Positions 226 to 15,084 of a stretch of DNA of 15,084 nucleotides are shown one piece after another. Both the position numbers and the translations under genes were made by a program. The first letter of the stretch is position 1. Each line of letters begins with the position of its first letter. The DNA is from an uncultured Desulfobacterium sp. GTDB taxonomy: Bacteria > Desulfobacterota > Desulfobacteria > Desulfobacterales > Desulfobacteraceae. The notes beneath the pieces are model-generated. The model was given only the letters and a program-made list of their open reading frames with translations, was not told where the DNA came from and ran no database searches. Where the stretch lies: positions 1 through 15,084 of the forward strand of contig CAKZLA010000170.1 in the NCBI GenBank assembly GCA_937124525.1, in the 5' to 3' direction.

Positions 226-282
226 GTATTGATCATGTTCGGTGGGGTAAAGGTCTAAGAGGCATTGTTCCCACCTAAAAAT

Positions 283-290
283 AAGGAGGA
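283..290 (+). promoter_or_regulatory. Strong ribosome binding site that fixes the hydrolase start
   Basis: AAGGAGGA lies four bases before the ATG at 295 and is nearly the full anti-Shine-Dalgarno complement. It selects this ATG over an in-frame TTG at 265, which has no such signal. Confidence 0.8.
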
Positions 291-294
291 TATC

Positions 295-1080
295 ATGCCT
301 GACAAAATAAATCCCGATTATAGTGTCCTGGACCACCCCATGGTGCTGGCCCATATTTTTCACCCCAGACCCGAGGATGGATATAGAAAAATAACAAATA
401 ATGATTTGTTGATACCTGTGTCGGACAATGTTCACATTGGTGCCTGTTTTCATATGTTTGATAAACTGGGACCCACCATTTTGTTTTTCCACGGCAACGG
501 TGAGATTGTTTCCGATTACGATGAGCTGGGGAAAGTTTACAACCGCATGGGAATAAACTTTGTGGTTGTTGACTACAGGGGCTATGGTCGCTCCACGGGT
601 TCTCCCTCTGTTGGCGCCATGATGTCAGACTGTCATGTTATTCTTGCCTTTGTCCGTGAATACTTGGAAGAAAAGGGGTTTACCGGCACATTGAGTATCA
701 TGGGAAGATCCCTTGGCAGTGCCTCTGCCCTGGAGCTTGCATCACAGTCCTCTCCCGGTTTTGAGAATCTGATCATTGAAAGCGGATTTGCCCATGCCGG
801 TGAATTGTTAAAGGTCTTGGGGATTGACCCTGATTCCATTCATTTCCAGGAAACAGAGGGTTTTGGAAATTTTGAAAAGATAAAAGAATGGGCAGGACCC
901 ACCTTGATTATCCATGCCCAGTTTGATCACATCATTCCCTTTTCTGACGGACAGGATCTCTTTGATGCCTGCCCCTCTTCAAATAAATCCCTTTTAAAAA
1001 TTCCAGGTGCCAACCACAATGATATTTTCATGAGGGGGCTCAATGCGTACATGGATGCTGTTAAAAAGCTGGTGACATAA
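295..1080 (+). CDS. Alpha/beta hydrolase family protein
   Basis: This is a predicted 261-residue serine hydrolase of the alpha/beta fold, probably cytoplasmic because no signal peptide or membrane segment is seen. An oxyanion-type HGNGE motif is at residues 66-70 and a VVDYRGYGRS strand-turn at 91-100. The nucleophile elbow G-R-S-L-G places the catalytic serine at 139. Asp211 (in QFDHIIPF) and His241 (in GANHND) are well placed to complete the triad. The length and layout suit the small BAAT/esterase/YqkD-like group. The substrate cannot be read from the sequence. The gene stands alone: the next gene is on the opposite strand, 188 bases away, with no clear terminator between them. Confidence 0.85.
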   Translation: MPDKINPDYSVLDHPMVLAHIFHPRPEDGYRKITNNDLLIPVSDNVHIGACFHMFDKLGPTILFFHGNGEIVSDYDELGKVYNRMGINFVVVDYRGYGRSTGSPSVGAMMSDCHVILAFVREYLEEKGFTGTLSIMGRSLGSASALELASQSSPGFENLIIESGFAHAGELLKVLGIDPDSIHFQETEGFGNFEKIKEWAGPTLIIHAQFDHIIPFSDGQDLFDACPSSNKSLLKIPGANHNDIFMRGLNAYMDAVKKLVT

Positions 1081-1268
1081 GAATATATGTTTGGCCAGCT
1101 TATGTGCGATAATGATTTGGGATGCCTAAAACAATGCTTTGTGATGATGTCGGCTAACCATTTGAAATCATTAAGCTTGAATTTTAATAGAGATAATGAG
1201 TTCTGCAAGTTATGAGAAATTATGATTCTGGAGTTTGGTTTTGTGGATGGTTTTCCGGGAAAACAGGT

Positions 1269-4121
1269 TCAGAGGTCTTTCTTTAATTCATCCAGAACCT
1301 TGCGAATGGTTTCAGCCAGATCCTTTTTTAAGACCGGTTTACCAAGAAAGGCTTTGATGCCCATGGCATGAAGCGGCTGTTCTGCAAATTTATGCTGATA
1401 CCCAGAACAGATAATGATTGGAATATCCGCTCTGATTTTTATCAGTTCCACTGCCAGCTGGGTTCCCGAAAGATTTGGCATAGTGATGTCCGTGATGACA
1501 AGGTCAAACCGTTTGGGCTTTGCTTTGAACAGGGTTAGAGCCTCAATACTGCTGGTTCGGATGGTCACCTTATATCCAAGCCGTTTCAGGATCAGGCTGT
1601 TAATTTTTGCAATGGGCAGCTCATCATCCACAAATAAAAGATGTTCCGTGCCCATGGGAAGGTCGGCTTCGAGACGGGGGGTAAGACAGGTTTCTGCTTT
1701 TCGTTGGGCAGGAAGATGTATCGTAAAGACAGTGCCTTCCCCGGGGTGGCTTTTTACCGAAATTTCACCATGGTGATTTTTGACGATGCCGTGGACCACC
1801 GCAAGGCCCATTCCTGTGCCCTCACCCTTTTTCTTGGTGGTAAAATAGGGTTCGAAAATGGATGACATGATGCCGGGGGGGATGCCGTGCCCGGTGTCTT
1901 CAATGGTAATTTCAATGTAATCGCCAGGGGGGAATGCCCCGGGGGATTCCAGGGAGTTGTCATGGATATGGACGTCCTTCACCCTTAAAGTTAATCGTCC
2001 GACTTGGCTTCCCATGGCATGGGCGGCATTGGTGCAAAGGTTCATGAAAATCTGGTGAATCTGTGTGGCATCGCCCATGATCATCCCTTTGCTTAAAATC
2101 TGCTGCTGGAGATCAATGGTGGTTGGCAGGGTGGATCTAAGCAATTTAAGGGCTTCTTTGGCAATGGCATCCACCCTCAGGGGTTTTATTTCTTCTTTGA
2201 CCTGGCGGGCAAAGGTGAGAATTTGTTTTACCAGTTCCCGGGCCCGCATGCCCGCCGTTAAAACCGCTTGCAGGTTCTGTTCCTGCTCAGAGGGGTGGGG
2301 CACATCTTCCAGGGTCAGTTCTGTGTATCCGATGATGGCCGATAAAATATTGTTGAAATCATGGGCAATGCCACCGGCAAGGGTTCCCAGGGATTCAATT
2401 TTCTGGGATTGGACCAGCTGATAATGGATCTGTTCCTTTTCCGCCTCGCTGTAGCGATGGATCAGAATACCTGCCAGGGTGTTGGCAATGGTGGTTAGAA
2501 AAATTTTCTCCAGCTCATTGGGCTGATGGTTTTTTTTCAGATAGATGGTAATGACGCCAAGGGTCTGGTTTCTGGCCCTGATGGGGATACAATAGTGACC
2601 GTGGTCCTGAATCCCGGGGGTTGAGATGGTGTGATCATGATTCACGTGATCGGCAAAAATAACCTTTCCGGTCAAGGCTGCCTGGCCGCAAAGGCATTTT
2701 CCAAAGGCAATGGTTTGACACGCTTTGATTTGCTCGTCTGAAAATCCCCGATGGGTTTTAAGTTCCAGAAGATTCGGCTCTTGTTTCACCAGAAAGATGC
2801 CCCCCATGGATTCAAAGGAGAGCCATGGAAGGGAGAGAAGAATATCAAGGGTCTGGTCCAGAATTTTGGAAATTTCAGTCTTTTTCAGTGAATTTTTTAA
2901 CAATTGATTCACCGCAGTCTGGATGTCATGACTGCATTTCAATTTAAAATCCGTTTCTTTCCGAAGCGAAATATCACGTATGATGGCAGTGATGACCTGT
3001 TCTTTGTTTTGTTTAAAACTGGACAGGGTCAATTCAATGGGAACCTGATGCCCGGTGTCTGTCCTGCCTTCAATTTCAACCGCCCGATCCAGGATGCTGG
3101 AAGGGCGGTCACTGAGAAAATCGTTTATGCCCGACTTGTGATCGGGCATGAAATACTCTGGGATCAAGATCGTGACCGGTTTTCCCAGGGCAGATTCCGG
3201 TGAGTAACCGAAAATGGCAGTGGCCGCTTGATTCCATTGGATGATCCGCTGGCTTTCATCAATGGAAATGATGGCATCCGCAGAACTTTGAACCAAGGAG
3301 CGATAGCGGTCCTCTTTTTCCTGAAGAGTTGATTCCGCAGCCCTTCGTTCTTCTACTTCAAGCTGAAGTATCTGGTTGGCTTTTTCAAGATCGCTTGTCC
3401 GCTCAATTACTTTTTTTTCAAGCAGGGCATGGGCGTTTTGCAGTGCGGATTCTGCCTGGGTTCTTTCAAGCATATGTCGGCTTGCTTTGAGTAGGGTTGC
3501 AATGATGACAACAAGCATGAAAACAGAAAACAGAACTATGGCATGCTTAAGGCGGTTTAAAAGAAGAGTCAAACTGTTTTTATGCTCGGTGATGTCGTAG
3601 TAGATCTCAACTGCACCGGCGAAAATGCCTTTTTGGTAGAAAGGAGTATAGGTTTCCACCACATCAATGGAAACCTTTCTGCCTTCAAGGGTGATGCAGT
3701 CTTTTTCAACGAGATTGGTTACGATTTCCCCTTGGGCCACCCTGTCTTTAAAATAGGTGTGAGTGTTGAGTTTCCCCAGGTCTTTGGGGTCGGTGGAAAA
3801 CAGCGTTTCTCCTAAGCTTGAAAAAATTTGCAATTTTTCCAGCTGAAAGTCTTTTTTAAGTTTGAAAAGTCCTGCTATGACGTCCGGAGTGAGAGAAATG
3901 TCGACGGCTTTATTGTTTTTGAAAATGTTATGGTGAACGTGCTGGGATACACGTATGGCGGTTTCTTCAGTGCGGATTGTAAGATATCCCACAAATCGGG
4001 GGAAGATAAGATAGAAGGTGACCAGGGGAAAAAGAAGAGTTACCCCCATGGTTATTATCAGAATGCGTCTTAATAGCGGATTTTCAATGAGATGCCATGC
4101 AACGTGTTTGTGTTCTTTCAT
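1269..4121 (-). CDS. Membrane hybrid sensor histidine kinase (Cache-like, PAS, GAF, HisKA, HATPase, receiver)
   Basis: This 950-residue hybrid kinase should sense a signal at the membrane and pass phosphate from His to its own receiver. A membrane segment at about 20-47 and another at about 193-212 flank a Cache-like extracytoplasmic domain. A coiled coil (about 215-272), PAS (about 272-385) and GAF (about 400-555) domains follow. HisKA has the phospho-acceptor H587 in GIAHDFNN. The HATPase shows the N box (N694, N698), DTGHGIP (742-748), FEPYFTT (756-762) and GEGTGMGLA (766-774). The C-terminal receiver has D832/D833, phospho-acceptor D878, S906 and K928, so it looks active. The ATG at 4121 is preceded by GAAGGG eight bases upstream and is preferred over an in-frame TTG at 4157. 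No DNA-binding partner regulator is adjacent, so the output is unknown. The GAF domain has an unusual Cys/His cluster. Confidence 0.93.
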   Translation of the reverse strand: MKEHKHVAWHLIENPLLRRILIITMGVTLLFPLVTFYLIFPRFVGYLTIRTEETAIRVSQHVHHNIFKNNKAVDISLTPDVIAGLFKLKKDFQLEKLQIFSSLGETLFSTDPKDLGKLNTHTYFKDRVAQGEIVTNLVEKDCITLEGRKVSIDVVETYTPFYQKGIFAGAVEIYYDITEHKNSLTLLLNRLKHAIVLFSVFMLVVIIATLLKASRHMLERTQAESALQNAHALLEKKVIERTSDLEKANQILQLEVEERRAAESTLQEKEDRYRSLVQSSADAIISIDESQRIIQWNQAATAIFGYSPESALGKPVTILIPEYFMPDHKSGINDFLSDRPSSILDRAVEIEGRTDTGHQVPIELTLSSFKQNKEQVITAIIRDISLRKETDFKLKCSHDIQTAVNQLLKNSLKKTEISKILDQTLDILLSLPWLSFESMGGIFLVKQEPNLLELKTHRGFSDEQIKACQTIAFGKCLCGQAALTGKVIFADHVNHDHTISTPGIQDHGHYCIPIRARNQTLGVITIYLKKNHQPNELEKIFLTTIANTLAGILIHRYSEAEKEQIHYQLVQSQKIESLGTLAGGIAHDFNNILSAIIGYTELTLEDVPHPSEQEQNLQAVLTAGMRARELVKQILTFARQVKEEIKPLRVDAIAKEALKLLRSTLPTTIDLQQQILSKGMIMGDATQIHQIFMNLCTNAAHAMGSQVGRLTLRVKDVHIHDNSLESPGAFPPGDYIEITIEDTGHGIPPGIMSSIFEPYFTTKKKGEGTGMGLAVVHGIVKNHHGEISVKSHPGEGTVFTIHLPAQRKAETCLTPRLEADLPMGTEHLLFVDDELPIAKINSLILKRLGYKVTIRTSSIEALTLFKAKPKRFDLVITDITMPNLSGTQLAVELIKIRADIPIIICSGYQHKFAEQPLHAMGIKAFLGKPVLKKDLAETIRKVLDELKKDL

Positions 4122-4170
4122 CTGCAAAATCCCTTCGGGGTGATGTATGAACGTCAAGGAAAGTCTATCT

Positions 4171-4198
4171 ATTACACATGTTTTCAGCGGAATGTCAA
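4171..4198 (-). promoter_or_regulatory. Candidate sigma70 promoter of the hybrid kinase gene
   Basis: Read on the minus strand, a perfect TTGACA (4198-4193) is followed after 16 bases by TGTAAT (4176-4171), which matches five of six -10 positions. Transcription would start near 4164, leaving a leader of about 43 bases before the ATG at 4121. Confidence 0.5.
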
Positions 4199-4287
4199 TG
4201 GGTTGAGTTTTTCATAAATGATTCTGATTTTACGTCGGATGATGGGAGATGGTGGATAAAATTAGAATCAATCCCACTATTTGAAAA

Positions 4288-4315
4288 TTGCCATGTGGTA
4301 TTGATTTGTGATAAA
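4288..4315 (+). promoter_or_regulatory. Candidate extended -10 promoter of asd
   Basis: TTGCCA (4288-4293, five of six -35 positions) is spaced 16 bases from GATAAA (4310-4315), with a TG dinucleotide at 4307-4308 giving an extended -10. A short perfect dyad GATAA-4-TTATC (4310-4323) overlaps the -10 and could be an operator, but it is too short to be sure. No riboswitch fold was recognised in the leader. Confidence 0.35.
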
Positions 4316-4370
4316 TGGTTATCGAAGTATTTAGTTCAATGGGGTGAAAAATAAAAATGAGGTGCACAAA

Positions 4371-5477
4371 ATGAAAAAAGTCGGATTTGTCGGATGGCGG
4401 GGAATGGTGGGATCTGTCCTCATGGAACGGATGATTGCAGAGAATGATTTCAAGGGGCTGACTCCCCTTTTTTTCACCACCTCCCAGGCGGGTCAGAAAG
4501 GGCCGGACATTGGCATGGAAAGCCCACCCCTGGTGGATGCCCATAACATAGATGCCTTGATGGCCATGGATATCATAGTCTCATGCCAGGGTGGTTCTTA
4601 CACCGAAGCCGTGCGACCCAAGCTGAAAGCCAACCAGTGGAAGGGTTACTGGATTGATGCGGCATCCACCTTGAGAATGGATGACAAAAGCATTATTGTT
4701 CTGGACCCGGTTAACCGCAAGGTCATTGACCAAGCCCTGAACGACGGTATTAAAAATTACATCGGTGGTAACTGCACTGTTTCTCTTATGCTCATGGCAT
4801 TGGGGGGATTGTTTGAAAATGATCTGGTGGAGTGGGTCACCTCCATGACCTACCAGGCCGCCTCGGGTGCCGGAGCCAAGAATATGCAGGAACTGGTGGC
4901 CCAGATGAAGTTTATCGGGGATGTTGGGGTGGATATTATGAATCAGACCGGGATGTCCATTCTGGATGTGGACAGAAAGGTGACAGCCAGCCTGAGATCA
5001 GATGGGCTTCCCACGGACAACTGGGCCGTTCCCCTGGCGGCAAGTCTGATTCCCTGGATTGACCGGGCCATGGAAAACGGTCAGACCCGGGAGGAGTGGA
5101 AGGGCGGTGTTGAAACCAATAAAATATTAGGCCGGTCGGATAGTCCGGTTCCCATTGACGGACAATGTGTAAGGATCGGTTCCATGCGGTGCCACAGCCA
5201 GGCATTTACCATAAAGCTCAACAAGAATGTGCCCCTGGATGATATCAATGCCATGCTGGCGGACAATAATGACTGGGTAAAAGTGGTTCCCAATATCAAA
5301 GAGCAGACCATTACTGAACTGACACCAGCGGCTGTCACAGGAACACTCACTGTTCCTGTGGGACGTATCAGGAAAATGATTCTTGGGGACGACTATCTAA
5401 CGGCGTTTTCTGTGGGGGATCAGCTTTTGTGGGGGGCGGCTGAGCCCCTGCGCAGGATGTTGAATATTATTCTTTAG
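4371..5477 (+). CDS. asd: Aspartate-semialdehyde dehydrogenase
   Basis: This cytoplasmic enzyme reduces aspartyl-4-phosphate with NADPH to aspartate semialdehyde, the branch-point metabolite for lysine/diaminopimelate, threonine and methionine. The 368-residue product is almost exactly the length of the Escherichia coli enzyme and belongs to the same subtype. It has the N-terminal nucleotide-binding loop GWRGMVGS (8-15), the catalytic C135 in GGNCTVS, and the substrate and acid/base residues R268 and H275. The ATG at 4371 is chosen because GAGGTG lies six bases upstream and the N-terminus then matches the family. An in-frame GTG at 4344 lacks this support. The gene is monocistronic, divergent from the hybrid kinase and closed by a strong terminator. 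Confidence 0.97.
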
Positions 5478-5497
5478 AAGAAGACGATTAAGTCCAT

Positions 5498-5548
5498 AAA
5501 AAACATTGCCATCCCCATGCACTGGGTGGGGATGGCGATGTTATTTTT
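5498..5548 (+). terminator. Rho-independent terminator of asd, probably bidirectional
   Basis: A 16-base arm at 5502-5517 pairs with 5527-5542 with only one G-T wobble, around a 9-base loop, and is followed by ATTTTT. On the other strand the same hairpin is followed by six T residues (complement of 5498-5503). It could therefore also stop the minus-strand transcript from the 5674-6108 gene. Confidence 0.8.
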
Positions 5549-5639
5549 GAGTTTATCAAAATATTACAAAAAAACATTTCTCTTTGCACCTCCCCACTCT
5601 TTTTTCCTCATTATAAGCTGTTTGGTGATTTCTTAATTG

Positions 5640-5671
5640 GGCGCTCCCCATGCGGGGGCGTGGATTGAAAC
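5640..5671 (+). CRISPR. Solitary type I-C-like CRISPR repeat
   Basis: This 32-base sequence ends in GTGGATTGAAAC and contains a CGCTCCCC / GGGGGCG stem (7 pairs, one of them T-G, small loop). As remembered, it differs at about two positions (2 and 12) from the common I-C repeat type that begins GTCGC and has a CCCC-ACGC-GGGG centre. No second copy is present one spacer length to either side, and no cas gene lies in the window. The orientation, with ATTGAAAC at the right end, means a leader would lie to the left in the AT-rich stretch 5550-5639. This is seen directly as a single repeat; being a relic or a minimal array is inference. Confidence 0.7.
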
Positions 5672-5673
5672 AA

Positions 5674-6108
5674 TCAATCATCGGGATCAACCGGTTCGGA
5701 CTCAAATCCTTCCATATAGGGTGCTATCAGATTTCGCTCGTTCGGCAGGATTGGTCTCCAGGATACTGTGTAAAGGGGGGTTGACGACAGTGATCCCGCC
5801 CGGTTTAGTGTCGCCACCTGTATGTCTCCAGAAGGATATTCCAGTAGTTCAATCCAGAGTGTCTTTTCCATTTGGAGCTGGTATTTTGCCGAAATCAGCC
5901 GTGCGAAATTCTGGGCATAGTTCCGAATGGAGGTGCCTTTTCCCATGTTTCGACACAATACCGCGTGTTCCTTTAGAAAATGAATTTCCGGATTTTCTGC
6001 ATTCAGCCGGATGATGCGTATGCGATATTCTCCAGGCCACCAGCATATAGGTGTCTGACCATCCCTTTGCTTGCCATCCCATTTATAAATACCGTCATAT
6101 ACGATCAT
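5674..6108 (-). CDS. Unrecognised 144-residue protein abutting the CRISPR-like repeat
   Basis: I do not recognise this protein. It begins with a Tyr/Trp-rich stretch, has Trp at 10, 23, 24, 91 and about 122, and ends in an acidic tail (FESEPVDPDD). No signal peptide, membrane segment or nucleotide-binding motif is visible, so a soluble protein is likely. The ATG at 6108 is chosen because AAGGGG lies about seven bases upstream; the frame stays open to 6207 but without a comparable signal. Codon use differs from the neighbours: ATA is used four times and CTA three times, with several CGA and TCG/TCA codons, which hints at horizontal acquisition. The stop codon lies two bases from the solitary CRISPR-like repeat. 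A regulatory or phage-related role is possible but unsupported. Confidence 0.65.
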   Translation of the reverse strand: MIVYDGIYKWDGKQRDGQTPICWWPGEYRIRIIRLNAENPEIHFLKEHAVLCRNMGKGTSIRNYAQNFARLISAKYQLQMEKTLWIELLEYPSGDIQVATLNRAGSLSSTPLYTVSWRPILPNERNLIAPYMEGFESEPVDPDD

Positions 6109-6131
6109 GGTTATTCCCCTTTGATGAAATT

Positions 6132-6173
6132 TGGATTCAGGACAGAACCCAAAATAAGCTTCCCCTGAATCCA
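6132..6173 (-). repeat. 10-bp perfect inverted repeat in the leader of the 144-residue gene
   Basis: TGGATTCAGG (6132-6141) is perfectly inverted at 6164-6173 across a 22-base spacer, ending 23 bases before the start codon at 6108. It is not followed by a T-run in either direction, so it is not an ordinary terminator. It could be an mRNA hairpin controlling translation, a dyad operator or a chance pairing. Confidence 0.5.
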
Positions 6174-6242
6174 TGGCTGTCTTGGTTTTATATAAAACTT
6201 CGTCCAAAATGCTGTAATTATTAGAGTTTGAATATTAGTTGT

Positions 6243-6273
6243 GGGCAGGCCTGATCCCCAATACGGTCTGCCC
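6243..6273 (-). terminator. Hairpin downstream of the flavin-binding protein gene
   Basis: GGGCAGGCC (6243-6251) pairs with 6265-6273 in nine pairs including one G-T, with a 13-base loop. It begins eight bases after the stop codon at 6281. There is no clear T-tract after it on the minus strand, so it may be a weak terminator or an mRNA-stabilising 3' hairpin. Confidence 0.35.
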
Positions 6274-6280
6274 GTGGCAG

Positions 6281-6691
6281 TTATACCAATTGCTTTCCGG
6301 CACCAGGTCCTGGTGATACACCGTATATCTCTTTAATGTTGAGTATCACAGCACCCTTGGATTTTAAAGGATGACCTGCCTTGTTGCCCAATGCTTCAAT
6401 CCATTTTGCCGTTTCTTCGTATTGATCGCCCTGGGTTTCAATGGTGATGCTGCATTTCAACTGATACCCTTCATGACCTTCCCAGAAGGTAACTGCTGCC
6501 TGGGGATTAGTTTTGAGGTTGGCAAGGGTTTTGTTGAAGTACTGATCCGAAATAAGGATTGTTTCATCATCAATGATTTTTTTTGCACCCACTGGAACCG
6601 CATTGGGGGTTCCGTCCAGTGTTGCCGTTGTGAGAACTGCCGTGGGGACTTTTGTGAAAAGTTCTTTCATTCGTTCCGTCATTTTTGCCAT
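6281..6691 (-). CDS. Pyridoxamine 5'-phosphate oxidase-like FMN-binding split-barrel protein
   Basis: The 136-residue product fits the small FMN-binding split-barrel family. It has the typical opening P-T-A-V-L-T-T-A-T-x-D-G-x-P-N-A-V-P-V (16-34), then DDETILISDQYFNKTLANLK (41-60), a sheet with AAVTFWEGHEGYQLKCSI (65-82), and a C-terminal GAVILNIKEIYGVSPGPGAGK. It is likely a soluble dimeric flavin-dependent oxidoreductase or flavin-binding protein. True PdxH enzymes are longer (about 200 residues), so vitamin B6 synthesis is not implied. The ATG at 6691 has AAGGAG six bases upstream; a longer frame up to 6784 lacks a signal. It follows arfB by 99 bases in the same direction. The substrate is unknown. 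Confidence 0.85.
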   Translation of the reverse strand: MAKMTERMKELFTKVPTAVLTTATLDGTPNAVPVGAKKIIDDETILISDQYFNKTLANLKTNPQAAVTFWEGHEGYQLKCSITIETQGDQYEETAKWIEALGNKAGHPLKSKGAVILNIKEIYGVSPGPGAGKQLV

Positions 6692-6790
6692 GGGATGCTC
6701 CTTTTTTAAAGTGATAAGTAATATATCATAAATCAGGTGAAAACCATGCGGTTTAATCCGCCTGGTTCCACCAGCGGTACTCATGGGAAA

Positions 6791-7210
6791 TCAGTCGGAA
6801 AAATTGATTTTTTTCCGCAGGTTTTTTTTCTCACTACGTCTGGCTTTGTTATCCAGTCTGCGTTGCTTTGCCCCCCGGGTTGGACGTGTGGGTCTTCTTT
6901 TTGTAATGGGAACAAGCGCTTTTTGGATAAGTTGTGTCAACCGGTTCAGGGCGTTGCCGATGTTTTTTTCCCGGCTTCGAAACAGCTGGGCCTTTATCAC
7001 GATAATTCCGTCGTTTGAGATGCGCCGGTCGCTGAGATGCAGCAGTTTTTCCTTTATGTTGTCTGGAAGGCTTGATTTTAAAATGTCAAACCGAAGATGA
7101 ACCGCCGAGGACACCTTGTTTACATTTTGGCCCCCTGGACCCTGGGCCCGGATGGCATTGAGTTCTATTTCATTGTCGAGGATAAAAATATCATCCATAA
7201 TGTGTAGCAT
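6791..7210 (-). CDS. arfB: Peptidyl-tRNA hydrolase ArfB (ribosome rescue, YaeJ/ICT1 type)
   Basis: ArfB releases the nascent chain from ribosomes stalled at the end of broken mRNAs by hydrolysing peptidyl-tRNA in the A site. The 139-residue protein has a compact domain with the catalytic GGQ at residues 26-28 in RAQGPGGQNVNK. A basic tail (KRRPTRPTRGAKQRR onward to KKNLRKK) is of the type known to enter the empty mRNA channel. The start at 7210 puts GGQ in exactly the same register as in the E. coli protein and has GAGGAA six bases upstream. A second ATG four codons later has a poorer site. RF1/RF2 can be excluded because codon-recognition domains are missing. Confidence 0.95.
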   Translation of the reverse strand: MLHIMDDIFILDNEIELNAIRAQGPGGQNVNKVSSAVHLRFDILKSSLPDNIKEKLLHLSDRRISNDGIIVIKAQLFRSREKNIGNALNRLTQLIQKALVPITKRRPTRPTRGAKQRRLDNKARRSEKKNLRKKINFSD

Positions 7211-7341
7211 AAAGGCTTCCTCGTCTGTTTGGGACACGTCCATTCGATGATAGGTTTTTGTAGCTGTTTTTTGGGAGAACTGGCTCCCCACTATGTCAAC
7301 ATGAAAACGTCTCATCGAGGTCCGGTGACCCGTAAATGATA

Positions 7342-7369
7342 AATATAGGACACAATTTTCATAGATCAA
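7342..7369 (-). promoter_or_regulatory. Candidate promoter of arfB
   Basis: On the minus strand TTGATC (7369-7364, four of six) is followed after 16 bases by TATATT (7347-7342, five of six). Transcription would start near 7335, giving an unusually long leader of about 125 bases before arfB. Confidence 0.4.
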
Positions 7370-7467
7370 GTGAGCTTATGCCGGAAATAGCCCGAAAGCC
7401 CATTGAAAACCACGAGTGTTAGAATCACTCTATTCCAAAAAACCCGGTGGAAGTTATCAGGGTTTCC

Positions 7468-7476
7468 TGATATAAA
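7468..7476 (+). promoter_or_regulatory. Candidate extended -10 promoter of tilS
   Basis: TGATATAAA is an extended -10 element (TG, one base, then TATAAA, five of six). No good -35 lies 16-18 bases upstream, which is common for extended -10 promoters. It would give a leader of about 40 bases to the ATG at 7521. Confidence 0.4.
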
Positions 7477-7520
7477 CGACTCAAAATTCTTTGTTTGATC
7501 CATGGGAGGAGCACCTTAAA

Positions 7521-8585
7521 ATGGCCGGAAAGCCACAGAAAAAAAATTCCGTTATGGCCCGGGTCCATGGCACGGTGCAAGATCATGCCATGCTCACTCC
7601 GGGGGATTCAGTCCTGGTGGGGGTATCCGGTGGGCCGGACTCCGTGGCCCTGCTCAGGATTCTCATTGCCTTGGCTGAAAAACTGTCCGTTAGCATTGCC
7701 GTGGCTCACCTGAACCATTGTCTCCGGGGAAAAGAGTCTGACAGGGATGAGGCCTTTGTCCGTGAACTGGCCGCCACCCACGGACTGCCCCTCCATGCAC
7801 AGCAAAAAGATGTGACTGCCTGGGCCCGGGAAAATAAAAAATCCATTGAAGAGGCGGCAAGGGATGTGAGATATGCCTTTTATGGAGAACTTGCTTCGCA
7901 GCATGGCTTCAACCGAATTGCCCTTGGCCATAACTATGACGACAATGCGGAGCAGGTGATGATGAATCTTTTGCGGGGAAGTGGTCCCCGGGGGCTTTCC
8001 GGTATTCCCCCCACACGGGACAATTGGATTATCCGTCCCCTGATCCGGATATCCCGGCAGGAGATTCTGGCTTTTTTGACCCATTGTCACCAGCCCTTTG
8101 TTATGGATAGTTCCAACCTGGACACCCGGTATCTAAGAAATAAAATCAGGCATGAACTTCTGCCGCATCTTATGGAGGCCTATAATCCCGGGGTTAAATC
8201 GTCTCTGAATCGGTTGAGTGATATTCTTACCAAGGAAGAGGCATGGATGGAGGAAGAGACCCTGGCCATTGTGGCAGGCCACCTGGAACGGATGGATGAA
8301 GGGGAAAATCGCCTCAGCCGAAAATTGTTCAATTCCATGCATTGCGCTCTGGCCCGGCGGGTTGTGAGATTTGCCATCCAGGAGGTGAAGGGCGATTTGA
8401 GGCGGATCACATTGGGCCATATTGATGATATTCTGGATCTTATTGCCAGCGATACCGGCGGGAAGAATCTGGATCTGCCCCATCGCATCCGAATCACCCT
8501 GACAAAAAAATGGGTCTACTTTACCCGAGCCACTCTGCCACTGCGGGAACTGCCCCCCATTACACCGGATAAGGGGTGGAATTAA
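7521..8585 (+). CDS. tilS: tRNA(Ile)-lysidine synthase
   Basis: TilS uses ATP to attach lysine to C34 of the AUA-reading tRNA(Ile), changing its decoding and charging identity. The 354-residue product has the PP-loop SGGPDS (36-41), LNHCLRG (64-70), EEAARDVRY (110-118), GHNYDDNAEQ (136-145) and RNKIRHEL (206-213), all typical of the catalytic N-terminal domain. The part after about 220 fits the helical substrate-binding domain. The separate C-terminal domain of longer TilS proteins (over 430 residues) appears to be missing, as in the short Aquifex form. The ATG at 7521 has GGAGGA ten bases upstream and is preferred over a TTG at 7491. The gene lies just before ftsH, a neighbourhood also seen in other phyla. 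Confidence 0.94.
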   Translation: MAGKPQKKNSVMARVHGTVQDHAMLTPGDSVLVGVSGGPDSVALLRILIALAEKLSVSIAVAHLNHCLRGKESDRDEAFVRELAATHGLPLHAQQKDVTAWARENKKSIEEAARDVRYAFYGELASQHGFNRIALGHNYDDNAEQVMMNLLRGSGPRGLSGIPPTRDNWIIRPLIRISRQEILAFLTHCHQPFVMDSSNLDTRYLRNKIRHELLPHLMEAYNPGVKSSLNRLSDILTKEEAWMEEETLAIVAGHLERMDEGENRLSRKLFNSMHCALARRVVRFAIQEVKGDLRRITLGHIDDILDLIASDTGGKNLDLPHRIRITLTKKWVYFTRATLPLRELPPITPDKGWN

Positions 8586-8731
8586 GAGAAAATACCTGAA
8601 TACCCGCAGAATTGATTTTGTGTTCATAAATACCTTTTGTACACGGATCACCTGAAGCTATACTATGACTGATGGTGAGATGGGGGTTAAAAAAGCTATC
8701 ATTGCATTGAAAAAACCACATAAAGTTTTCC

Positions 8732-8759
8732 TTGCCTAATCAAAATTGATGTTTATTAT
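8732..8759 (+). promoter_or_regulatory. Candidate promoter of the ftsH operon
   Basis: TTGCCT (8732-8737, four of six) is spaced 16 bases from TATTAT (8754-8759, five of six). It sits in a very AT-rich stretch (8740-8815) that also contains other -10-like sequences, so the exact promoter is uncertain. No CIRCE element or clear heat-shock sigma site was recognised. Confidence 0.35.
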
Positions 8760-8850
8760 TGAATTTAAATGTTTTTTGTGTTTTTTCTATTATAGTTTGA
8801 TTATATTAAAATTAACCCCCCAGTTAAATGGGATCAATAACAGACTCAAA

Positions 8851-8855
8851 AAGGA
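8851..8855 (+). promoter_or_regulatory. Ribosome binding site supporting a TTG start for ftsH
   Basis: AAGGA lies seven bases before TTG 8863. Upstream in-frame ATGs at 8746 and 8749 have no such site, and using them would add an N-terminal extension atypical of FtsH. Confidence 0.7.
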
Positions 8856-8862
8856 ACTACCA

Positions 8863-10866
8863 TTGAATCAGTTTTATAAAAATTTGTCTCTGTGGCTTGT
8901 TATCGTACTGATGATGGTGATGCTGTATAATATTTTCAACCAGCAGCAGGTGAGTGACAACACCCTGGGGTATTCGGATTTTCTGGCCATGGTTGAATCT
9001 GAGCGGGTTCAGAGCGTTGTCATACAGGGTCAGGACCTATATCTTACGGATACGAACGGCTCAAAATATAAAACCTTTTCACCTGGGGACGGAGATCTCA
9101 TTCGCACCCTGAGAAAGAACGGGGTTTCCATTAAGGCCAAGCCGCCCACGGAATCTTCATGGTTCATGTCCATCATCATCTCCTGGCTACCCATGGTTGT
9201 GCTCATTGGCGTATGGATCTTTTTCATGCGCCAGATGCAGGGTGGCGGAGGGGGCAAAGCCATGTCCTTTGGTAAAAGCAAGGCCCGGCTTATGTCCGAT
9301 AAAGGGGCGAAAATTACCTTCAAGGACGTGGCAGGCATTGATGAAGCCAAGGAAGAGCTCACCGAGGTGGTTGAGTTCCTCAAGGAGCCAGAGAAGTTTA
9401 CCCGCCTGGGGGGACGTATCCCCAAGGGGGTGCTGCTGGTGGGATCTCCGGGAACCGGAAAAACCCTTTTGTCCCGGGCCGTTGCCGGGGAGGCCGGGGT
9501 TCCGTTTTTCACCATAAGTGGGTCTGATTTTGTTGAGATGTTTGTGGGTGTCGGTGCTTCCCGGGTGAGGGATCTCTTTGCCCAGGGCAAGAAAAATGCC
9601 CCCTGTATTATTTTCATTGATGAAATTGATGCCGTTGGACGTCAGCGGGGGGCTGGCATGGGCGGTGGTCATGATGAACGGGAACAGACCCTGAATCAGC
9701 TCTTGGTGGAGATGGATGGATTTGAGTCCAATGAGGGGGTTATCCTCATGGCTGCCACCAACCGGGCCGACGTGCTGGACCCGGCCCTGCTCAGACCCGG
9801 CAGGTTTGATCGCCAAGTGGTGGTGGACATGCCAGATATCAAGGGCCGCATCGGTATCCTCAAGGTTCACATGAAAAAAACACCCCTGGACAAGGATGTG
9901 GATGTGGTGACCCTGGCCAAGGGAACCCCTGGTTTTTCCGGTGCAGATCTGGAAAATCTGGTGAACGAAGCAGCCCTGCTGGCAGCAAAGAAAAATCATG
10001 AAAAATTGACCATGATGGATTTCGAGGACTCCAAAGATAAGGTTTACATGGGCCTTGAAAGAAAATCCAAGGTGATTCGCAAGGATGAAAAGCGCACCAC
10101 GGCTTACCATGAAGGGGGGCATGCCTTGGTGGCACGACTGCTTCCCAATACAGATGCTGTCAATAAGGTAACCATTATTCCCCGGGGAAGGGCTGCCGGA
10201 GTGACCTGGTTTCTTCCCGAAGAGAGTGGGTTTAAATATAAAGATCAGCTTGAGAACGATCTTGCCGTGGCCTTTGGGGGACGGGTGGCCGAAGAGTTGA
10301 TTTTTAAACGCATCAGCACCGGAGCGTCAAATGATATCAAGCAGGCCACGGCCATGGCCAATCGTATGGTGCGTGTGTGGGGCATGAGCGAAAAACTGGG
10401 TCCCATGGCCTATGACTCCGGGGAAGAGCAGATTTTTATTGGCAGAGATGTGGGCCATGCCAAGGAGTATTCCGAAGATACTGCCCGGAAAATTGATGCC
10501 GAAGTTTCTGCCATTATTAACAGAAACTATCAAAAGGCCCAGGAGGTGCTGGAAGAAAATATTGATATCCTCCACAGCCTTGCAAAGCTTCTCCTGGAAC
10601 AGGAGACGGTCATGGGTGCAGAACTGGATGCCCTGATTAAATCCATGAAGCCGGAGTTTGATCCGCCAAAACCAGAAAATCTTTTTAAAGATGAAGAATT
10701 GCTGGCAGAAGTGGAAAAAGGTGACACCCCATCCTCTGAAGATGATGAAGCAGAAAGTGGAGACCAGAAAGAGCCAGGAACTCAAACAGAGGCTCATACC
10801 CCTAATGATGCGTCAGATGATGCACAGGAAAAAGAGGGTGAAAAGGATGGAGGCAGCAAAAAATAA
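8863..10866 (+). CDS. ftsH: ATP-dependent zinc metalloprotease FtsH
   Basis: FtsH is the membrane-anchored hexameric AAA+ protease that degrades misassembled membrane proteins and short-lived regulators. Starting at TTG 8863 it has 667 residues: a membrane segment (about 9-25), a periplasmic domain (about 30-100), a second membrane segment (about 101-122), the AAA module and the M41 peptidase. Visible motifs are Walker A GSPGTGKT (194-201), Walker B IIFIDEID (249-256), the pore loop around F223-V224, the second region of homology with R312 and R315, and zinc-site HEGGH (416-420) with a likely third ligand D491. The usual HEAGH is HEGGH here, which keeps the HExxH core. The tail after 600 is acidic and low in complexity. 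The gene opens a coupled operon; its stop overlaps the folP start by one base. Confidence 0.98.
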
Positions 10867-11732
10867 TGAAATCCTTTAGCATTGAATGGGATCGGTATTG
10901 TCTTGATTTGTCCCCGGGTAAAACATGTATCATGGGCATTCTCAACACCACCCCGGACTCTTTTTCCGATGGCGGCAGATTTTTTGGCTTTGATGACGCA
11001 GTGGCCCATGGCCGGGCACTGGTTGCCGCCGGGGCTGGGATTCTTGACATTGGCGGTGAATCTACCCGCCCCTTTTCAAAGGGGGTGTCTGCCCAGGAGG
11101 AAATGGACCGGGTGGTTCCGGTGATTGAACGGCTTTCCCGGGAAATTGAAGTGCCCATCTCCATTGATACGGTGAAAGCAAGTGTGGCAAAGGAGGCGAT
11201 CAAGGCCGGTGCCGCCATCATCAATGATATCACAGCCCTGGAACGGGACCCGGACATGGCCCTTCTTGCAGCAAAGGAAAAGGTACCTGTCATGCTCATG
11301 CACATGAAGGGGACCCCGGAAACTATGCAGATGAATCCCCAATATGATGATTTCATAAATGAGATAACAACTTACCTGGAGCAGCGAATTTCCTTTGCCG
11401 TTGAATCAGGCATAGCAAAGGAGCATATTATTCTTGATCCCGGCATTGGCTTTGGTAAAACCGTGGATCACAATATCATGCTCATTAAAGATCTTCACCG
11501 GATTCATTCGCTGGGCTGTCCGGTGCTGATGGGGCCGTCAAGAAAATCCTTTATCAGGACCCTCTTGTCCAAAGAACTGGATGGGACAGACGTGGATATG
11601 AGCCAAATTGAGCTGGGTAATCTGGGGGCGGTTGCAGCCTGTATCTTGAATGGCGCACAGATTGTCCGGGTCCACGATGTGAATGCAGTTCGTCCCCTGA
11701 CTTGCATTATCAACGCCATACAAACTGTATGA
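10866..11732 (+). CDS. folP: Dihydropteroate synthase
   Basis: This cytoplasmic enzyme condenses p-aminobenzoate with hydroxymethyl-dihydropterin diphosphate in folate synthesis and is the sulfonamide target. The 288-residue TIM-barrel product carries the signatures MGILNTTPDSFSDGG (23-37), DIGGESTRP (61-69), SIDT (99-102), IND (119-121), DPGIGFGK (191-198), GPSRKSF (223-229) and RVHDV (268-272). N27, D101, N120, D191, K227, R268 and H270 are the expected ligands. The ATG overlaps the ftsH stop (TAATG) with a GGAGG-like site about eleven bases upstream, so translational coupling is likely. Linkage of folP with ftsH and tilS is also known in Bacillus. Confidence 0.97.
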   Translation: MKSFSIEWDRYCLDLSPGKTCIMGILNTTPDSFSDGGRFFGFDDAVAHGRALVAAGAGILDIGGESTRPFSKGVSAQEEMDRVVPVIERLSREIEVPISIDTVKASVAKEAIKAGAAIINDITALERDPDMALLAAKEKVPVMLMHMKGTPETMQMNPQYDDFINEITTYLEQRISFAVESGIAKEHIILDPGIGFGKTVDHNIMLIKDLHRIHSLGCPVLMGPSRKSFIRTLLSKELDGTDVDMSQIELGNLGAVAACILNGAQIVRVHDVNAVRPLTCIINAIQTV

Positions 11733-12709
11733 TCCCCCTGGGGAGGCACCTCTTTGGCGCATCCCCCGGGGAGCCCCTTGCGTTGGTATTTCCAGTAAAA
11801 CCATTCCATTATATCTTTTTTATACTGCTCTTTCTGGTTGCAGGGTGCGCCCCTGAACCTGTTGAGACAGATCTGCTGGTTCCTGTGAAATTTGCCGACA
11901 TGCCAGCAGGGCTTATCCAAACTGAATTTTACACCCGGAACATTGAAGTTCGGGTGAGGGGAACCCTGGGTCAGATTCGTCGGGTGGAGGCACTGAACCC
12001 CATCTATCTTGTGGATCTATATGCGGATTTGACCTCGGATCCTGCAGATGGTGCCGCCTTTATTCCTCCGGCATTTTATGCCATTCCTGTGATCAAAGAA
12101 CGACTTCCCACCCCTCCGGGCGTTGACATTATCCATGTTAAGCCAGCATATATTACGGTGGAGCTGGACAGGAAAGAAATTCGCAGTCTGCCGGTAACGG
12201 TGCTGCTCACCGGTGAACCCGCCATGGGGTATGAAGTGGCCCGCACGAAAAGTGAACCGGCAACGGTGGTCCTCACAGGGCCGGAATCACTCTTTCAAAA
12301 AATCACTGAGATTCAAACAAAACCCGTGGATATCACCGGTGCAGATGCGGATCTTAAAAAAACGGGGTCTTTGGATATTGATGCCCTGGGGGGTTCCACC
12401 TCTGCCTCCTTGGTCACCGTGATGGTTGCTATTCAAGAGAAAATAACCACCCATACCTATGGGGCCGTTCCAGTAACCACCCGAAATGGCCCCCCCAGGG
12501 TTCAGATAAGCCCCCCTGAAATGCAAATTACCCTGAAAGGTCCTGTCAATCGATTTAAAGACAAGGGCGCTGATACGGATTTTCAGGTGTATATTGATTT
12601 AAAAAATTTACCCGCCGGGGTGTATGTGCGACCGGCCGTGATCAATGTGCCGGTGGGGTTGATGCTTGTGGAGGCAAAACCGGAAAATTTTACAGTGACA
12701 ATTAGATAA
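11729..12709 (+). CDS. YbbR-domain lipoprotein (CdaR-like)
   Basis: The 326-residue product has a hydrophobic signal (about 28-38) ending in the lipobox LVAGC with the lipidated Cys at 40, so it should be an exported lipoprotein. About three YbbR-type beta repeats follow (about 48-145, 146-235, 236-326), with the typical pattern PVTVLLTGEPAMGYEV and VVLTGPESLFQKI. YbbR/CdaR proteins usually bind and regulate the membrane diadenylate cyclase CdaA, whose gene normally sits directly upstream. Here it is missing, and folP is directly upstream instead. The ATG at 11729 overlaps the folP stop (ATGA). A TTG at 11783 with GGGGAG nine bases upstream would give a more normal 21-residue signal peptide and is a real alternative. 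YbbR identity is by repeat pattern and context. Confidence 0.77.
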   Translation: MIPLGRHLFGASPGEPLALVFPVKPFHYIFFILLFLVAGCAPEPVETDLLVPVKFADMPAGLIQTEFYTRNIEVRVRGTLGQIRRVEALNPIYLVDLYADLTSDPADGAAFIPPAFYAIPVIKERLPTPPGVDIIHVKPAYITVELDRKEIRSLPVTVLLTGEPAMGYEVARTKSEPATVVLTGPESLFQKITEIQTKPVDITGADADLKKTGSLDIDALGGSTSASLVTVMVAIQEKITTHTYGAVPVTTRNGPPRVQISPPEMQITLKGPVNRFKDKGADTDFQVYIDLKNLPAGVYVRPAVINVPVGLMLVEAKPENFTVTIR

Positions 12710-12722
12710 ACAGGGAAAAAAG

Positions 12723-13502
12723 ATGCTGCTGGTAATTGATGTGGGAAACACCAATACGGTGCTGGGTGTGTTTGACAAGGATTGTTTGATTTGCAATTGG
12801 CGTATTCGCACCGTGAGGGATACCACCGCCGACGAGTTTAATATTCTTGCCAGGGGGCTGTTCAGTGGCAATAGGGTTGCCTTTTCTGATATTAAAAAAA
12901 CGGTGATTTCCTGCGTGGTACCTCCGGCGGTGAGAATTCTGGATAATTTTTGCCAGAAATACCTTGATCAGGCCCCTTTGTGGGTGAACCCTGATGCCGT
13001 AAGGCAGCTGATGCCCATTCTCTACAACAATCCTGCTGAAGTCGGGGCAGACAGGGTGGTCAATGCCATTGCTGCCTATGAAAAGTATAAAGAAAGTTTG
13101 ATCATTATTGATTTTGGTACGGCAACCACCTTTGATGTCATCACCGAAAAAGGCGAATACCTGGGGGGGGCCATCATCCCGGGCATCATGATTTCAGCAG
13201 AGGCCTTGTTTCAAAAGGCCTCACGCCTTCCCCGGGTGGAGATCTTCATGCCACCGGAGTCGGTGATCGGAAGGGATACCATCGACAGTATTAAATCGGG
13301 GCTTATGCACGGCAATGCGGCCCTTGTGGACGGCATGGTGGCCCGCATGAAAAAAGAGATGGGAACCACTCCCCGGGTGATTGCCACAGGGGGGCTTGCG
13401 GTGCTCATTGCGGAACTCACTGACAGCATTGAAATTGTGGATAATAATCTCACCCTGGAGGGGCTTCGCATCATCAGCCGGGAGCTGGATAAAACAATTT
13501 AA
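12723..13502 (+). CDS. coaX: Type III pantothenate kinase
   Basis: CoaX phosphorylates pantothenate, the first step of coenzyme A synthesis, and typically needs a monovalent cation. The 259-residue product has the ASKHA-fold phosphate loop DVGNTNT (6-12), GADRVVN (108-114) with the catalytic Asp110, IDFGTATTFD (129-138), GGAIIPG (148-154) and ATGGLA (221-226). The length is typical. AGGGA lies six bases before the ATG, 13 bases after ybbR, so it is the last gene of the ftsH operon. Its stop is only nine bases from the stop of the convergent zinc-ribbon gene, and no strong terminator separates them. Confidence 0.97.
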   Translation: MLLVIDVGNTNTVLGVFDKDCLICNWRIRTVRDTTADEFNILARGLFSGNRVAFSDIKKTVISCVVPPAVRILDNFCQKYLDQAPLWVNPDAVRQLMPILYNNPAEVGADRVVNAIAAYEKYKESLIIIDFGTATTFDVITEKGEYLGGAIIPGIMISAEALFQKASRLPRVEIFMPPESVIGRDTIDSIKSGLMHGNAALVDGMVARMKKEMGTTPRVIATGGLAVLIAELTDSIEIVDNNLTLEGLRIISRELDKTI

Positions 13503-13511
13503 GGCAATCGC

Positions 13512-14198
13512 CTAACCCTTACCTATTTTTTTAAGGGTCTCATTGAATATGGCGTAAAACTGTCCATGGTCTTTCAGGGTCTTTTTAAAGAGATTCAGGG
13601 CGTTGGAAGTCATTTCCTTGTGGTTGATAATTTGGTTGACGCTGGCGTGAAGGGCGGCCATGTTGTCCTGGGTTCTCAGTGATTTGGAGATGAGAATGAC
13701 CACGATCTGTCTTCTCAGGGTCATATCCAGCTCTTTTAATTTTTGGAACAGCGTGTTGGACCCCATATGTTCGGAGTCAAAGGTGTCATCTATCACAATG
13801 ATGTTGAACAGATGGTATTTCATCCGGGTCAATGCCGTCTTGATATCCGCCACCGCTTCAATGTGATATTTCATTTCTTCCAGGGCCGTGCGTGCATGGC
13901 CTGCGGTATTGGTATCCCCCAGGCAGACCAAGGCGGTTTCTGCATTGTCATCCAGGTAGTCAAAGGGCCTTTCTGCCGCATCATAATCAGGGGTGCTGGA
14001 TTGGGGCCTGGGTGCAGGTTCCGCAGTAGCTGCTTTCCGGGGGCTCGGATCACCATTGGTGGTGGTATCCAGGGAATCAGGTTCAATATAAAGGCGCTGC
14101 TTGCACTTGGGGCAGAGAAAAGAAGATTTTTTGTCTTTGGGGATCTTATGATCCGGTACCTTGAGTTTGGCGCTGCAGCCGGTGCAGGTGATTTCCAC
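13512..14198 (-). CDS. Zinc-ribbon protein with receiver-like C-terminal domain
   Basis: The 228-residue protein opens with a zinc ribbon, Cys5-x2-Cys8 and Cys29-x2-Cys32, of the kind seen at the start of many deltaproteobacterial regulators. A Pro/Ala/Thr-rich linker (about 41-80) leads to an alpha/beta domain (about 88-215) resembling a response-regulator receiver: FNIIVIDDTF (131-140) sits where the phospho-acceptor strand would be, followed by IVVILISKS and INHK. The acidic pair expected after the first strand is not evident (ALVCLGDTN), so it may not be phosphorylated normally. The start is uncertain: GTG 14198 has AAGGAG ten bases upstream, whereas GTG 14207 overlaps the upstream stop (GTGA) but has that site only one base away. 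Coupling to the PilT-type gene suggests control of pili or surface motility, by inference. Confidence 0.8.
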   Translation of the reverse strand: MEITCTGCSAKLKVPDHKIPKDKKSSFLCPKCKQRLYIEPDSLDTTTNGDPSPRKAATAEPAPRPQSSTPDYDAAERPFDYLDDNAETALVCLGDTNTAGHARTALEEMKYHIEAVADIKTALTRMKYHLFNIIVIDDTFDSEHMGSNTLFQKLKELDMTLRRQIVVILISKSLRTQDNMAALHASVNQIINHKEMTSNALNLFKKTLKDHGQFYAIFNETLKKIGKG

Positions 14199-14203
14199 GG
14201 GTG

Positions 14204-15084
14204 TCACGCTCCTTCGTAATTATGGTCCAATTCCAGGTTTTCAATTTCAGTGGTCTTTTCTCCCCGAGCACTTTTAATGGAGTCCAGACCCCTGCCCACA
14301 ATGGCCTTTTTGGAGGCATAGCCCATGGCAATCTCCTCGGTGATAAGACCCCTCTGGTAAAGCCCCAGAATGAAGTCGTCAAAGGTGGTCATGCCAAATG
14401 CCGTACCGTCTTTGATGATCTGATAAAAGGTTTTATCCTCGGATTCCCCGTTGGTGATGGCATCTTTGATTCTCAGGTTGTTGCCCATGATCTCAAAGGC
14501 GGCCACCCGGCCCCCTCCGGTTTTGGGCAAAAGCCGCTGGCATACAACCCATCGCACCGTGTCGGCCAGGCGAATGCGGATCTGTTTTTCCTCCTCCGAT
14601 GAAAACATGCCCACAATGCGGTTAATGGTCTGGCCTGCATCCACGGTGTGCAGGGTGGACAACACCAGATGGCCGGTTTCTGCGGCGGAAAGGCCGATTT
14701 CCACGGTTTCTCTGTCCCGCATCTCCCCCACCAGGATTATTTTAGGGGCCTGGCGAAGGGCCGCACGCAGACCACTTGCAAAGGTATCAAAGTCAGATCC
14801 CAGCTCTCGCTGGTTAAAGGTGGCTTTTTTCTGGGGATGCTGGAATTCAATGGGATCTTCCAGGGTGATGATATGAACGGATCGGGTGTCGTTGAATTCA
14901 TCCAGCAGGGCCGCAAGGGAGGTACTTTTACCACTGCCGGTGGATCCGGTGACAAAGATGATGCCATTTTTTTCATGGACCATTTTGTCAAAGGCCCGGG
15001 GCAGGTTCAGTTGCCTTACCGTGGGAATCCGGGTTTCCAGTTTTCTTAAAATAATGGCGTACTTCCCGGATCTTGAAAAAATAT
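14204..15084 (-). CDS. PilT/PilU-type pilus retraction ATPase (5' end beyond the window)
   Basis: The frame is open to the window edge, so the N-terminus is missing; 292 residues are visible. PilT-family ATPases form hexamers at the base of type IV pili and drive retraction. Seen in order are YAIILRKLETRIPT (the family linker), Walker A GSTGSGKS (visible residues 46-53), the Asp box ITLEDPIEF, the Walker B region ILVGEMRDRET, and the His box STLHTVDA. The C-terminal AIRNLIRE-like motif that is diagnostic of classical PilT is altered to LRIKDAITNGE, so a PilU-like or divergent paralogue is possible. An N-terminal start codon cannot be judged. The stop lies at or very near the start of the zinc-ribbon gene, indicating one operon. 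Confidence 0.93.
   Translation of the reverse strand, partial: IFSRSGKYAIILRKLETRIPTVRQLNLPRAFDKMVHEKNGIIFVTGSTGSGKSTSLAALLDEFNDTRSVHIITLEDPIEFQHPQKKATFNQRELGSDFDTFASGLRAALRQAPKIILVGEMRDRETVEIGLSAAETGHLVLSTLHTVDAGQTINRIVGMFSSEEEKQIRIRLADTVRWVVCQRLLPKTGGGRVAAFEIMGNNLRIKDAITNGESEDKTFYQIIKDGTAFGMTTFDDFILGLYQRGLITEEIAMGYASKKAIVGRGLDSIKSARGEKTTEIENLELDHNYEGA

What the first reader, a model, noticed from the sequence alone, without database searches (positions are those of the whole stretch)
5550..5671. A lone type I-C CRISPR repeat with possible leader remnant, without array or cas genes
The 32 bases at 5640-5671 keep the full 3' GTGGATTGAAAC end and a stem, which is unlike the decayed ends of old arrays. 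The AT-rich stretch to its left (5550-5639) contains CTTTGCACCTCCCC, which faintly recalls leader motifs. It may be a leader with one repeat left after array collapse, a site that could still accept spacers in trans, or a repeat carried in by recombination. The repeat is seen directly; the leader role is inference.
Basis: partly seen in the sequence, partly recalled or inferred. Interest (0 to 1): 0.7.

Follow-up and report, generated by a model that had tools for sequence, protein, structure and literature searches.

The report
Lone CRISPR repeat between housekeeping genes
A single, almost perfect copy of the repeat from a bacterial immune memory (CRISPR) sits alone between ordinary genes of a sulfate reducer; it is real, but it looks like a leftover rather than a working part.

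Summary
The repeat is real. Window 5640-5671 (+) matches the type I-C repeat of the closest relative found, Desulfocicer vacuolatum, at 30 of 32 bases (7 exact array copies there, beside cas4, Cas1c and cas2). The next best window site scores 18 of 32; 100 shuffles reach at most 21. No second or partial copy lies nearby, and none of the window's 13 main ORFs matches a cas model. The repeat ends 2 bases from the stop codon of a conserved 177-aa gene. Both neighbours are collinear with D. vacuolatum, which has no repeat there. The leader is not supported: 15 of 174 equally AT-rich genomic segments resemble 17 family leaders as well, and a leader profile finds nothing there, although one shuffle test is weakly positive (8 of 300). 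Best reading: an orphan, probably inert repeat left by a lost array, a mobile element or recombination. Its layout resembles the solitary repeat units known from phages, some of which act as RNA anti-CRISPRs, but no mobile element or + strand promoter was found. Whether its own genome has a I-C system could not be tested.

The parts
5640..5671 (+). solitary type I-C CRISPR repeat, 32 nt, near-intact
   Evidence: 30/32 to the D. vacuolatum I-C array repeat; next window site 18/32
5545..5639 (.). AT-rich intergenic DNA (29% GC), proposed leader; not supported as a leader
5502..5542 (+). intrinsic terminator-like hairpin behind asd; on the other strand the stem is followed by GTTTTTTATGG, so it may also end the 177-aa gene's transcript
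   Evidence: one search lists the + strand only; the minus-strand reading is by eye
4344..5477 (+). asd, aspartate-semialdehyde dehydrogenase (upstream neighbour)
   Evidence: TIGR01745, 577 bits, cut-off 403
5674..6207 (-). 177-aa conserved protein of unknown function; its stop codon (5674-5676) lies 2 bases beyond the repeat
   Evidence: match in 54 of 86 family genomes; no Pfam, PADLOC, NCBIfam or PHROG match at E<=0.001

Best explanation
A single, nearly intact type I-C CRISPR repeat is lodged between two convergent chromosomal genes. It is most likely an orphan relic: the last repeat of a small array or mobile copy that recombined away, or a stray copy brought in by recombination. It has no recognisable leader and no partner repeat, so it should neither gain spacers nor give a guide RNA. 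The 177-aa gene's transcript would carry it in antisense, at most as a small hairpin in the 3' untranslated RNA. Shown: identity, solitariness, place, absence at the nearest relative's matching site. Inferred: origin and lack of function.
For: Repeat identity 30/32 with an array beside cas4, Cas1c and cas2 in the nearest relative found, and matches at 25 to 40 places each in three Nitratidesulfovibrio plasmids, one of which is annotated around the match with cas3-cas5c-cas8c-cas7c-cas4-cas1c-cas2. No other copy or half copy in the window; flank self-match 7 against 32 in an array. Leader not found. No + strand sigma-70-type site in 5400-6400 at the scan's threshold. No repeat at the syntenic site of D. 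vacuolatum. Position 2, T in every copy listed (capped lists; the pattern left this base open), is G here.
Against: Only one or two substitutions, with stem and 3' end intact, is little decay for an old relic. A weak leader-like signal exists in one test: over 17 leaders, 8 of 300 dinucleotide shuffles reach the anchored sum and 18 of 300 the local sum; for the leader L082 alone 0 of 300 (anchored) and 1 of 300 (local).
Confidence: 0.62

Rival explanations
1. Solitary repeat unit of Racr type: the repeat is transcribed as a short RNA that occupies Cas proteins and blocks or tunes a I-C system; here a chromosomal or domesticated copy, or the scar of a phage that carried one.
For: It has the layout of solitary repeat units (intergenic, full-length match, no partial copy within 100 bases; criteria in PMC10651486, passages read). 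Lone I-C-like repeats are frequent among matching viral contigs: 27 of 32 distinct sites have no partner within 100 bases, e.g. L119, also 30/32.
Against: No mobile element recognised; the neighbouring segments are collinear with D. vacuolatum. No + strand promoter-like site at the scan's threshold. Flanks show no clear likeness to those of viral solitary repeats: best local flank score 28, for L157 (no shuffle control was made).
Confidence: 0.13
2. Leader plus one repeat left by collapse of an array at this very site, still able to take spacers in trans.
For: CTCTTTG and ATTATA are shared with family leaders; 8 of 300 shuffles reach the anchored sum.
Against: 15 of 174 AT-matched genomic segments score as well; no nhmmer hit in the region; leader core motifs absent; no cas genes near; the repeat begins GG, not GT.
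Confidence: 0.1
3. Assembly artefact: a true array collapsed to one repeat in a short-read assembly.
For: No genome is held for the window, so it may be a metagenome contig; that short repeats can collapse in assembly is general knowledge, not tested here.
Against: No leader in front; both flanks are collinear with D. vacuolatum, so the contig is not a chimera.
Confidence: 0.08
4. The repeat is a working part of the 177-aa gene's 3' end (a hairpin that ends or protects its mRNA).
For: It lies 2 bases beyond the stop codon; on the + strand the flank adds a second small hairpin (5639-5690: 8 of 200 shuffles fold as well), and the antisense strand also folds.
Against: 0 of 30 loci fetched for this gene (one the same place as L001) have a repeat-like site; a terminator-like hairpin that may serve both genes lies at 5502-5542.
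Confidence: 0.07

Closest known systems
Type I-C (Dvulg) CRISPR repeat of Desulfocicer vacuolatum and other Desulfobacteraceae
   Same: 30 of 32 bases, 3' GTGGATTGAAAC, stem and loop
   Different: one copy, no array, no recognisable leader, no cas genes in the window; base 2 is G
Solitary repeat units / RNA anti-CRISPRs (Racr), PMC10651486 (2023; passages read)
   Same: single intergenic full-length repeat without partner
   Different: those were sought in viruses, prophages and plasmids and are said to lie often downstream of a promoter; this one lies among chromosomal housekeeping genes with no promoter-like site found
Orphan CRISPR arrays (PMC8616872, passages read) and scattered isolated CRISPR repeats in chromosomes (one sentence on Streptococcus thermophilus in PMC10889254, passage read)
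   Same: repeats without cas genes beside them
   Different: an array has at least two repeats and a spacer; the passage on isolated repeats gives no repeat type and no explanation

Membership tests
Type I-C CRISPR repeat | sequence match to repeats of arrays beside I-C cas genes | tested here: met
   30/32 to the L066 array beside cas4, Cas1c (TIGR03640, 501 bits, cut-off 385) and cas2. Cas5d itself was not found in that draft genome
CRISPR array | two or more repeats with spacers of regular length | tested here: not met
   next best site 18/32; no half copies
I-C leader | similarity to leaders of related arrays | tested here: not met
   15 of 174 AT-matched segments as good; nhmmer no hit. 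One shuffle test was weakly positive (8 of 300)
Solitary repeat unit | intergenic full-length repeat match without full or partial repeat within 100 bases | tested here: met
   it lies between the stop codons of asd (to 5477) and the 177-aa gene (from 5674). SRUFinder itself was not run
Solitary repeat unit / Racr | carried by a virus, prophage or plasmid | tested here: not met
   collinear with D. vacuolatum on both sides; of 8 window proteins scanned, none gave a phage structural or replication PHROG (two gave matches to esterase or unknown-function families)
Racr | expressed as a small RNA that binds Cas proteins | not testable with these tools
   no RNA data; no + strand promoter-like site
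I-C system in the same genome | I-C cas genes and arrays | not testable with these tools
   no genome held for the window

The most novel reading that the evidence does not exclude
The repeat is a chromosomally fixed solitary repeat unit that the host, or a vanished phage, used as an RNA decoy or Cas5c cleavage site to tune I-C immunity, i.e. an RNA anti-CRISPR outside any mobile element.
Probability: 0.08. Interest if true: 0.55.

Novelty: new member of a known kind. Interest (0 to 1): 0.24.

Why it matters
If only a relic, it is a small trace of how CRISPR repeats scatter through genomes. If lone repeats in chromosomes were functional, searches limited to viruses, prophages and plasmids would be missing a class of CRISPR regulators. 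The side observation that two places of another genome of the order (G369) share a 70-base stretch that carries a I-C repeat suggests that lone repeats can be copied about.

Tried and rejected
Chance match: rejected (30/32 against at most 21 in 100 shuffles). Repeat as a conserved part of the asd or 177-aa gene region: 0 of 55 loci (the asd loci reach up to 10 kb on each side and several end earlier, the 177-aa loci reach about 1.5 kb, 30 of 56 matches were fetched, and L001 and L036 are the same place). Hidden second repeat: none. Known RNA family: the one relevant match is CRISPR-DR9 at 18 bits against a gathering score of 45. Phage records: no match to the bare repeat at E<=1. Other single hits in family genomes were looked at and set aside: G039:C36 and G070 have one repeat at a contig end right behind a leader-like stretch, and G052 the same with the next repeat cut by the contig end, which I take as arrays broken by assembly; G039 has two more repeats on another contig; G023 has two repeats behind another, type I-E-like array (typed by eye). 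My first leader script had a pattern one base short; one search replaced it. Of 22 upstream stretches I used 17 and dropped L071 (behind another array), L078 (no leader seen), L084 and L109 (inside arrays) and L106 (itself solitary). The AT-matched control drew 1,500 segments from the window and six relatives' loci (both strands, step 25, so overlapping and not independent; coding DNA included). In genomes with arrays, extra lone copies could hide, because lists were capped and only genomes with few hits were inspected. Papers: searches were seen as listings; passages were read of PMC10651486, PMC8616872 and PMC10889254 only.

Full report
Observation. The 32 bases at 5640-5671 (+) are GGCGCTCCCCATGCGGGGGCGTGGATTGAAAC. 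The closest relative found is Desulfocicer vacuolatum DSM 3385 (L001, in genome G001): its DNA is collinear with window 268-14400 in ten pieces of 72-92% identity; window 1079-4277 has no match there. That genome carries seven exact copies of GTCGCTCCCCATGCGGGAGCGTGGATTGAAAC on a 4,053-base contig beside cas4, a type I-C Cas1 (TIGR03640, 501 bits against a cut-off of 385) and cas2. The effector gene cas5d was not found in this draft genome. The window repeat agrees at 30 of 32 positions. The second best place in the window agrees at 18; the best places of 100 shuffled windows agree at 17 to 21. A form that differs from the window repeat only at base 2 occurs in real arrays (three exact copies among those listed for G254; two in viral contig L118). 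Matches also fall at 25 to 40 places each in three Nitratidesulfovibrio plasmids, one annotated with a complete I-C operon. So the repeat is real and it is type I-C.

It is alone. No full or half copy lies elsewhere in the window. A flank self-match test gives 7, against 32 for a repeat inside an array. Recognised genes are household genes: asd, arfB, tilS, ftsH, folP, type III pantothenate kinase and others. Of 13 main ORFs scanned against PADLOC-DB, 11 match nothing, and the other two (FtsH; a secretion-type ATPase-like ORF at 14204-14983, so named by eye) match only other ATPase models, no cas model.

Place. Upstream lies asd (4344-5477, +) with a terminator-like hairpin at 5502-5542. Downstream lies a 177-aa gene on the minus strand (5674-6207), whose stop codon begins after 2 further bases. 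This protein has no Pfam, PADLOC, NCBIfam or PHROG match but has a match in 54 of 86 genomes of the family. The two genes converge; read on the minus strand, the hairpin is followed by GTTTTTTATGG, so it may serve both. In D. vacuolatum the same two genes flank an intergenic stretch of about 350 bases without the repeat (stop codon of the homologue read by eye at L001 9795-9797). Among 55 fetched loci with asd or the 177-aa gene, 0 have a site of 22/32 or better, and only D. vacuolatum (seen as L001 and L036) shows both genes together within the stretch held.

Leader. I took 17 of 22 upstream stretches of I-C arrays as leaders. Many share GCTCTTTGACAATTTGTTTT and end in forms like ATAGTAACA. 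Aligned with the repeat end fixed, window 5540-5639 gets a summed score of -80.5. Of 300 dinucleotide shuffles of the same segment 8 reach it (18 of 300 for the local sum), and for one leader (L082) 0 of 300 do: a weak signal for a leader. But of 174 genomic segments of at least 70% AT, 15 reach the sum (2 of 200 at 66-70%, 4 of 448 at 62-66%, 0 of 678 at 58-62%; the window segment is 71% AT), and a profile of the leaders finds nothing in the region. The core leader motifs tried are absent. I judge the leader not supported.

How rare is it. With up to 3 mismatches, 22 of 86 family genomes have the repeat; with up to 1 mismatch, 19 of 389 order genomes. Genomes with few hits were inspected: three have a repeat at a contig end behind a leader-like stretch and one has two repeats behind another array. 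One genome, G369, has true lone copies: two of them, on different contigs, share 70 bases at 93% identity including 18 bases left and 20 right of the repeat, and a third place shares part of that stretch (sequence). G369 also has a Cas5d (TIGR01876) gene and an array of 11 repeats of another form. In viral contigs, a pattern for the 3' part of I-C repeats found 36 stretches; of 32 sites distinct by their flanks, 27 have no partner repeat within 100 bases (a few of the 27, such as L143 and L148, match a I-C repeat well only in the 3' half). This agrees with the published solitary repeat units, some shown to act as RNA anti-CRISPRs, including a I-C example (PMC10651486, passages read). Scattered isolated CRISPR repeats have also been mentioned in Streptococcus thermophilus genomes (PMC10889254, one passage read).

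Interpretation. The most likely account is an orphan relic: a lost small array, a stray copy moved by recombination, or the scar of an element that carried a solitary repeat. The data cannot tell these apart. Function as a spacer acceptor lacks a recognisable leader; function as an RNA decoy lacks a promoter-like site and a mobile context, and the I-C system of the host is unknown because no genome is held. The near-intact sequence means that the copy is either fairly young or kept; this is the main point against calling it dead.

Noticed in passing
L164:1463-1532 and L165:1463-1532 (G369:C28, C43); L177 about 1500-1553 (G369:C25): A 70-base stretch with a lone I-C repeat between shared flanks stands at two places of one genome (93% identical), with a partial third copy whose repeat end differs: perhaps a small dispersed element that carries a CRISPR repeat.
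   Followed up: partly
L168 minus strand, about 125-185 (G369:C154): On the contig with a Cas5d gene, far from the main array, one repeat is followed by about 35 bases and a repeat-like hairpin, like a regulatory mini-array.
   Followed up: no
L119:586-617 and L130:3949-3980 (one viral contig): Two different lone I-C repeats on the same 45.8-kb viral contig, candidates for RNA anti-CRISPRs.
   Followed up: partly
L118 minus strand 3941-4113: A viral contig with a three-repeat I-C mini-array.
   Followed up: no
window 5674-6207: A conserved 177-aa protein, found in 54 of 86 genomes of the family, without a match in Pfam, PADLOC, NCBIfam or PHROGs.
   Followed up: partly
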